From Cylicocyclus nassatus (Eukaryota > Nematoda > Chromadorea > Rhabditida > Strongylidae), in NCBI GenBank assembly GCA_958299035.1, contig CATQJL010000326.1:1254232-1318231 (forward strand): 64,000 nt of DNA, given 5' to 3'. Of the stretch, positions 22,844 through 31,001 are shown piece by piece. The position numbers were made by a program, and so were the translations under genes. How positions within the stretch are numbered: the first letter of the stretch is position 1; every line of letters begins with the position of its first letter. The notes under the pieces are model-generated. The model did no database searches. It worked only from the letters and a program-made list of their open reading frames with translations, and had not been told where the DNA came from.

Positions 22844-31001
<8,158 letters not shown>

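What the first reader, a model, noticed from the sequence alone, without database searches (positions are those of the whole stretch)
25527..25552. Amplification adapter overwrites the second catalytic HxGH motif of PCYT2
Seen directly: 26 bases starting AAGCAGTGGTATCAACG inside an otherwise intact coding exon. Known: this is the SMART-type primer, also used as the adapter of PCR-amplified ultra-low-input long-read libraries. The replaced stretch is exactly nine codons (26 adapter bases plus one), and the frame is kept. A gene predictor would therefore report a full-length enzyme that falsely appears to have lost its second HxGH site. Equal-length replacement suggests primer mispriming or an in-register PCR chimera rather than joining of two random fragments.
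Basis: partly seen in the sequence, partly recalled or inferred. Interest (0 to 1): 0.88.

Follow-up and report, generated by a model that had tools for sequence, protein, structure and literature searches.

The report
Sequencing adapter pasted over enzyme gene
A 26-letter laboratory adapter was written over part of a horse-worm enzyme gene when the genome was assembled, and the false version is already in protein databases; it is an artefact, not biology, but one with a regular rule that can be screened for.

Summary
Confirmed: window 25527-25552 is exactly the 26-base SMART-type amplification adapter, inside a coding exon of PCYT2. It is an artefact. The host assembly, very probably Cylicocyclus nassatus, holds 2655 copies of the adapter's first 23 bases. 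The false protein is already deposited: P0001 reads EYSALIPLL where 18 of 18 other aligned PCYT2 proteins have DLFHxGH. A second PCYT2 gene in the assembly has exactly 26 other bases between the same flanks: an overwrite, not an insertion. Near-equal-length overwriting is general (14 of 17 testable internal sites within one base of 26, one of them a tie; none a pure insertion). Adapters also sit at contig ends, and internal adapters within a contig point one way (12 of 12 neighbouring pairs; 4 of 13 across gaps). Untrimmed read ends plus a string-graph layout built from read prefixes would give this; that last step is inferred. Low interest as biology, moderate as quality control.

The parts
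25527..25552 (+). 26-base amplification adapter, its 3' end facing real sequence from 25553 on
   Evidence: Exact match; 2655 copies of its first 23 bases in the assembly
25527..25553 (-). Nine adapter-altered codons, read EYSALIPLL (residues 209-217 of P0001)
25461..25571 (-). PCYT2 coding exon that holds the patch (37 codons, IVYVCG...ILNDQ), with real PCYT2 sequence on both sides of the adapter
   Evidence: exon limits set by eye from GT/AG and P0001
29891..29902 (-). First HxGH motif of the same gene (HFGH), intact
24959..31001 (-). PCYT2 gene, span of the exons located here (the C-terminal end of P0001 was not located); collinear on both sides of the adapter
   Evidence: Exon translations; joined exons 99% identical to P0001

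Best explanation
The 26 bases are an untrimmed amplification adapter at the end of one long read. Shown: adapters stand at contig ends in this assembly (outer end against the gap); at internal sites they mostly overwrite about the same number of real bases; and they keep one orientation per contig where this could be tested. Inferred: a string-graph assembler of the miniasm/hifiasm type overlaps read B to read A with B's unmatched 26-base tip tolerated, projects B's start along the diagonal, and builds the contig from read prefixes, so that B's adapter replaces the 26 bases of A under it. Because 26 for 26 keeps the frame and the adapter is free of stops in 5 of 6 frames, the gene model survives with a false nine-residue patch.
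For: (1) 2655 copies in the assembly, control 0. (2) Of the 79 listed sites on C1 up to 23.15 Mb, 53 face a scaffold gap with the adapter's outer end (39 read, 34 of them flush and 5 with one base between; 14 inferred from the 523-base spacing, a spacing confirmed at the two such pairs that I read) and 26 are internal. (3) A second PCYT2 gene on C316 aligns with exactly 26 bases between the same flanks. (4) Of 33 internal sites read, 17 have repeat copies in the DNA held: at 14 the commonest replaced length is 25-27 (at L168 tied with 24), at 0 of 17 is it a pure insertion. (5) At 15 sites the overwritten bases match the adapter at 28% (control 25%), last 8 bases 32.5% (control 26%), last base 4 of 15. 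(6) Neighbouring internal sites with no known gap between agree in orientation 12 of 12; across a known gap 4 of 13; 6 of 6 multi-site groups are uniform, reached by 1 of 20000 shuffles. (7) L144 carries the first 11 adapter bases directly followed by a full adapter, as two overlaid read starts would leave. (8) In IMG/VR 112 of 116 stretches carry the adapter at base 1 of the stored stretch, and T follows the 25-mer in 112 of 114 forward copies.
Against: Three of 17 testable sites depart: L140 (23, one copy), L153 (32-33, six copies; the four shown are 80-88% alike), L169 (7, six copies, so net +19). L168 is mixed (26 twice, 24 twice, 13 once). One bacterial gene on contig C308 (L164) shows 25 bases replaced by 26, a frame shift (my count). 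The slight excess over control in the last 8 bases (32.5% against 26%) was not tested for significance. Raw reads and the assembly log were not available; the miniasm/hifiasm rule is recalled, not tested (the miniasm paper is not held). Several testable sites lie in the same repeat families and are not independent. In IMG/VR the adapter is almost only at stretch starts, not at ends, which this model does not explain.
Confidence: 0.88

Rival explanations
1. Primer mispriming inside the genome: the adapter primer annealed in the exon during amplification and its sequence was copied into the product.
For: Would also leave an equal-length patch with the adapter's 3' end facing real sequence. The last 8 overwritten bases match slightly more often than control (32.5% against 26%).
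Against: No clear 3' homology at 15 sites (last base 4 of 15); the paralogue differs from the adapter at 3 of its last 4 positions. Predicts no single orientation per contig. A misprimed product ends at the primer, so it would still need the layout step to become internal.
Confidence: 0.04
2. Read-level PCR chimera or ligation concatemer: two amplicons joined through an adapter before sequencing.
For: Such junctions exist elsewhere: 11 of 12 loci in the species-genome collection with this adapter show a head-to-head adapter pair, one with a 1-base spacer and three with an imperfect partner.
Against: Here there is one adapter, the gene is collinear on both sides, the replaced length equals the adapter, and orientation is uniform within contigs. 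How many head-to-head pairs this assembly holds could not be counted.
Confidence: 0.06
3. A real allele: the worm's PCYT2 truly carries these 26 bases and has lost its second HxGH.
For: The frame is open and the deposited gene model is complete.
Against: The sequence is identical to a laboratory adapter with 2655 copies in the assembly; 18 of 18 other aligned proteins, the worm's second PCYT2 among them, keep the motif.
Confidence: 0.005

Closest known systems
Adapter contamination of PacBio HiFi assemblies, error type A of Sim et al. 2022 (HiFiAdapterFilt, PMC8864876; passages seen)
   Same: Adapter inside an otherwise contiguous contig; they tested HiCanu, HiFiASM and PB-IPA and found adapter-bearing contigs
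   Different: They describe errant insertions of the PacBio blunt adapter; here it is the amplification adapter, real bases are overwritten at about equal length, and orientation is uniform within contigs
Adapter contamination at contig ends of microbial assemblies, Moeller et al. 2024 (PMC11536531; abstract, outline and one section seen)
   Same: Adapters concentrated at contig ends in mirrored orientation
   Different: Illumina adapters; no internal overwriting in the section that I read
The same 26-mer reported as HiFi adapter contamination in the Lecanora helva genome note (PMC12613986; passages seen)
   Same: Identical 26-mer, named there as adapter contamination and removed with lima before assembly
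   Different: There it was removed from the reads; here it reached the assembly

Membership tests
SMART-type / HiFi amplification adapter | Exact 26-base sequence | tested here: met
   named as adapter contamination in PMC12613986. At 72 of 72 sites read, the search for the first 23 bases was followed by the full last 3
SMART-type / HiFi amplification adapter | Library made by PCR amplification of very little DNA | tested here: inconclusive
   Indirect only: PMC10682056 cites the C. [quoted passage not shown] the preprint is not held
HiFi adapter contamination, type A of Sim et al. | Adapter added as an insertion | tested here: not met
   Paralogue has 26 bases between the same flanks; 0 of 17 testable sites are pure insertions, though L169 is a net gain of 19
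Primer mispriming product | 3' homology between primer and the bases it replaced | tested here: not met
   15 sites; replaced bases inferred from repeat copies or the paralogue
String-graph read-prefix layout artefact | Replaced length equals adapter length | tested here: met
   exactly; within one base at 14 of 17 sites (one a tie), three exceptions
String-graph read-prefix layout artefact | One orientation of internal adapters per contig | tested here: met
   12 of 12 neighbouring pairs against 4 of 13 across known gaps; first 23 Mb of one scaffold only
String-graph read-prefix layout artefact | Reads at the site start with the adapter | not testable with these tools
   No raw reads held
PCYT2 (ethanolamine-phosphate cytidylyltransferase) | Two cytidylyltransferase domains, each with HxGH | tested here: inconclusive
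   Domain 1 HFGH intact; Pfam PF01467 matches two stretches of P0001; the second HxGH is hidden by the adapter, present in 18 of 18 other aligned proteins

The most novel reading that the evidence does not exclude
Untrimmed amplification adapters turn into a systematic and stealthy error class in string-graph assemblies: each internal one overwrites rather than interrupts, leaves contig length and mostly the reading frame unchanged, and so yields complete-looking proteins with false 8-9 residue patches ([40 protein letters not shown]) that can be misread as lineage-specific loss of active sites. This would affect other amplified-HiFi genomes besides this one.
Probability: 0.6. Interest if true: 0.45.

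Novelty: not a real feature. Interest (0 to 1): 0.3.

Why it matters
As biology it does not: the enzyme very probably kept its motif. As quality control it does. A chromosome-scale assembly carries about 2655 adapter copies, and at least one database protein has a falsely erased catalytic motif. The overwrite rule also suggests how to handle such sites: mask the 26 bases rather than cut them out, because cutting would delete real positions and shift frames (inference). The five adapter peptides give a simple screen of protein databases, which I did not run.

Tried and rejected
Mispriming (disfavoured). Insertion (rejected). Head-to-head concatemer (seen in 11 of 12 loci, not here). Real allele (rejected). 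Single-adapter control L011 from an archaeal genome: the open frames listed showed me no clear gene across the site, so it tested nothing. L164 (contig C308): I searched one open frame through its adapter and the best hit matched only the part after it; tblastn of that hit then showed both parts, in different frames, with 25 bases replaced by 26 (counted by eye).

How the replaced-length test was made: 33 internal sites were given; the search DNA was about 252 kb of loci plus the 64-kb window. A copy counted if both flanks aligned for 50 bases or more to within 10 bases of the junction; for each copy the flank pairing nearest to 13 bases was taken (neutral between 0 and 26; in tandem satellites this picks one of several), and pairings outside -60 to 90 were dropped. 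16 of 33 sites, the window among them, gave no copy and say nothing; the window's 26-base result comes alone. The 39 gap-edge sites were left out of the test. An earlier run had its output cut and is superseded. Controls for one search were random 26-mers of the outer flanks of the sites with copies.

Counting adapter dimers and 5'-half fragments in the own genome failed (not completed). Literature: the 26-mer stands in 193 papers, of which 30 were listed, by their titles mostly transcriptome work; some searches gave listings only. In these listings and in the passages read I met no description of equal-length overwriting; that is a small part of the literature.

Full report
What is there. Positions 25527-25552 hold exactly the 26-base SMART-type adapter. 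The exon around it (25461-25571, minus strand) belongs to PCYT2, ethanolamine-phosphate cytidylyltransferase: 58 aa around the site match PDB chain 3elb_A (human, as I recall), and exons over some 6 kb on both sides line up in order with PCYT2. Nine codons read EYSALIPLL. The first HxGH (HFGH, 29891-29902) is intact, and the 36 aa around it match Pfam PF01467.

Which genome. The window lies at G000:C326:1254232-1318231 in an assembly of 514,686,895 bases in 369 contigs. C326 is 34,426,028 bases long, C316 93,436,948. The best protein match to my conceptual translation, P0001 (99%), comes from a contig of 34,426,028 bases, and P0052 from one of 93,436,948; both are named Cylicocyclus nassatus, a strongylid nematode (called the most abundant horse parasite in a preprint title seen in a reference list). 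The assembly is therefore very probably that species. P0001, held in ncbi, uniref and nr, carries EYSALIPLL at residues 209-217. I aligned 19 of the 120 listed proteins: the other 18 of 18 have (A/S)(F/Y)DLFH(V/I/L)GH there, the worm's own second protein P0052 included. The false protein is already in the databases.

Overwrite, not insertion. Searching the own genome with the exon region (32 matches, candidates capped) gave the window itself, a second PCYT2 gene on C316 in two pieces (67% and 70% identical), and 29 short matches at the adapter. Aligned to the window, the second gene has exactly 26 bases between the same flanks; its protein P0052 has the HVGH motif there.

A general pattern. 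The adapter's first 23 bases occur 2655 times in the assembly, the reversed control 0 times; its last 16 bases occur 2714 times, control 0, so most copies look whole. I read 72 sites: 39 face a run of N with the adapter's outer end (34 flush, 5 with one base between) and 33 are internal (26 on C1, six on loci, and the window). Of the 33, 17 have other copies of their repeat in the DNA held. The commonest replaced length is 25-27 at 14 of them (at L168 tied: 26 twice, 24 twice, 13 once); exceptions are 23 (L140, one copy), 32-33 (L153, six copies) and 7 (L169, six copies); none is 0. Three of the 14 lie in one satellite family (171-base unit) and others share repeat families, so there are fewer independent cases. 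In a bacterial gene on contig C308 (L164) the protein comparison gives 25 bases replaced by 26, so the frame is usually but not always kept.

Mispriming. For 15 sites (the 14 plus the window with its paralogue) I compared the overwritten bases, read from the copies, with the adapter. Identity is 28% overall, 32.5% over the last 8 bases and 35% over the last 4, against 25% overall and 26% over the last 8 for random flank 26-mers; the last base matches at 4 of 15. The small excess was not tested; a primer that had annealed there would need far more.

Orientation. If contigs are built by joining read prefixes, all internal adapters of a contig should point the same way. The 79 sites listed on C1 up to 23.15 Mb comprise 26 internal and 53 gap-edge sites (14 of the 53 inferred from the 523-base spacing and not read). 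Neighbouring internal sites with no known gap between agree in 12 of 12 cases; with a known gap between in 4 of 13. All 6 groups with more than one site are uniform; 1 of 20000 shuffles reached that. Gaps outside the fetched stretches that carry no adapter are unknown to me; they should dilute the agreement, not create it. Events in the tube before sequencing do not know the contig's direction, so this places the fault in the assembly step.

Mechanism. Shown: adapters survived to contig ends; internal ones mostly overwrite about equal length; orientation is uniform within the contigs tested. Inferred from recalled knowledge of string-graph assemblers (miniasm, hifiasm): small unmatched read tips are tolerated, the overlap is projected to the read end along the diagonal, and contigs are concatenated read prefixes. 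A 26-base adapter tip then replaces 26 true bases. L144, with the first 11 adapter bases followed by a whole adapter, looks like two such overlays 11 bases apart. Which assembler was used I could not check: the preprint is not held.

Size of the problem. If the share of internal sites on C1 (26 of 79) held everywhere, about 870 of the 2655 would be internal overwrites, some 23 kb of lost sequence. This scales up from the first 23 Mb of one scaffold. The adapter is free of stops in 5 of 6 frames.

Other collections. The same 26-mer occurs in 12 loci of the species-genome collection, all 12 with FRAM in the record title; 11 of 12 are head-to-head adapter pairs, seven of them exact and directly joined, one with a 1-base spacer, three with an imperfect partner. 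The 25-mer occurs in 116 stretches of IMG/VR, at base 1 of the stored stretch in 112.

What is known. Adapter contamination of HiFi assemblies is established (Sim et al. 2022, passages), including errant insertions, and contig-end adapters in microbial genomes too (Moeller et al. 2024, abstract and one section). The 26-mer itself is named as adapter contamination of HiFi reads in PMC12613986 (passages). I met no description of equal-length overwriting with uniform orientation in what I searched or read, which is far from the whole literature.

Noticed in passing
L164 (contig C308), around 1279-1774: A contig of the worm assembly holds a gene 97% identical over its last 79 residues to a pentapeptide-repeat protein of the bacterium Exercitatus varius, so bacterial DNA is in the assembly; the gene carries the adapter too.
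   Followed up: partly
window 25861-26439: A perfect CA repeat of 579 bases in an intron of PCYT2, about 310 bases from the adapter; another very long CA tract lies near 9200-9870.
   Followed up: no
L165 (C316:41043000-41047999): A second PCYT2 gene; its deposited protein P0052 lacks most of the stretch that reads [32 protein letters not shown] in P0001, though the aligned DNA is partly there, so the gene model may be wrong.
   Followed up: no
L137, 150-10000: A satellite of 171-base units with 141-base variants fills nearly all of this 10-kb stretch near the start of C1; the adapter copies of L137, L138 and L139 lie in it.
   Followed up: partly
Viral-contig loci L013-L128: The adapter is at base 1 of the stored stretch in 112 of 116, but at or near the far end in only two (L039, L073); the asymmetry is unexplained.
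   Followed up: no
L169, site at 397: Here 26 adapter bases stand where six repeat copies have 7, the clearest exception to equal-length overwriting.
   Followed up: partly
window 61467-62012: An open frame with a voltage-sensor-like segment ([22 protein letters not shown]); the Pfam Ion_trans match of its first 101 residues (21.9 bits) is below the cut-off of 25. Perhaps a calcium channel exon (recalled likeness).
   Followed up: partly
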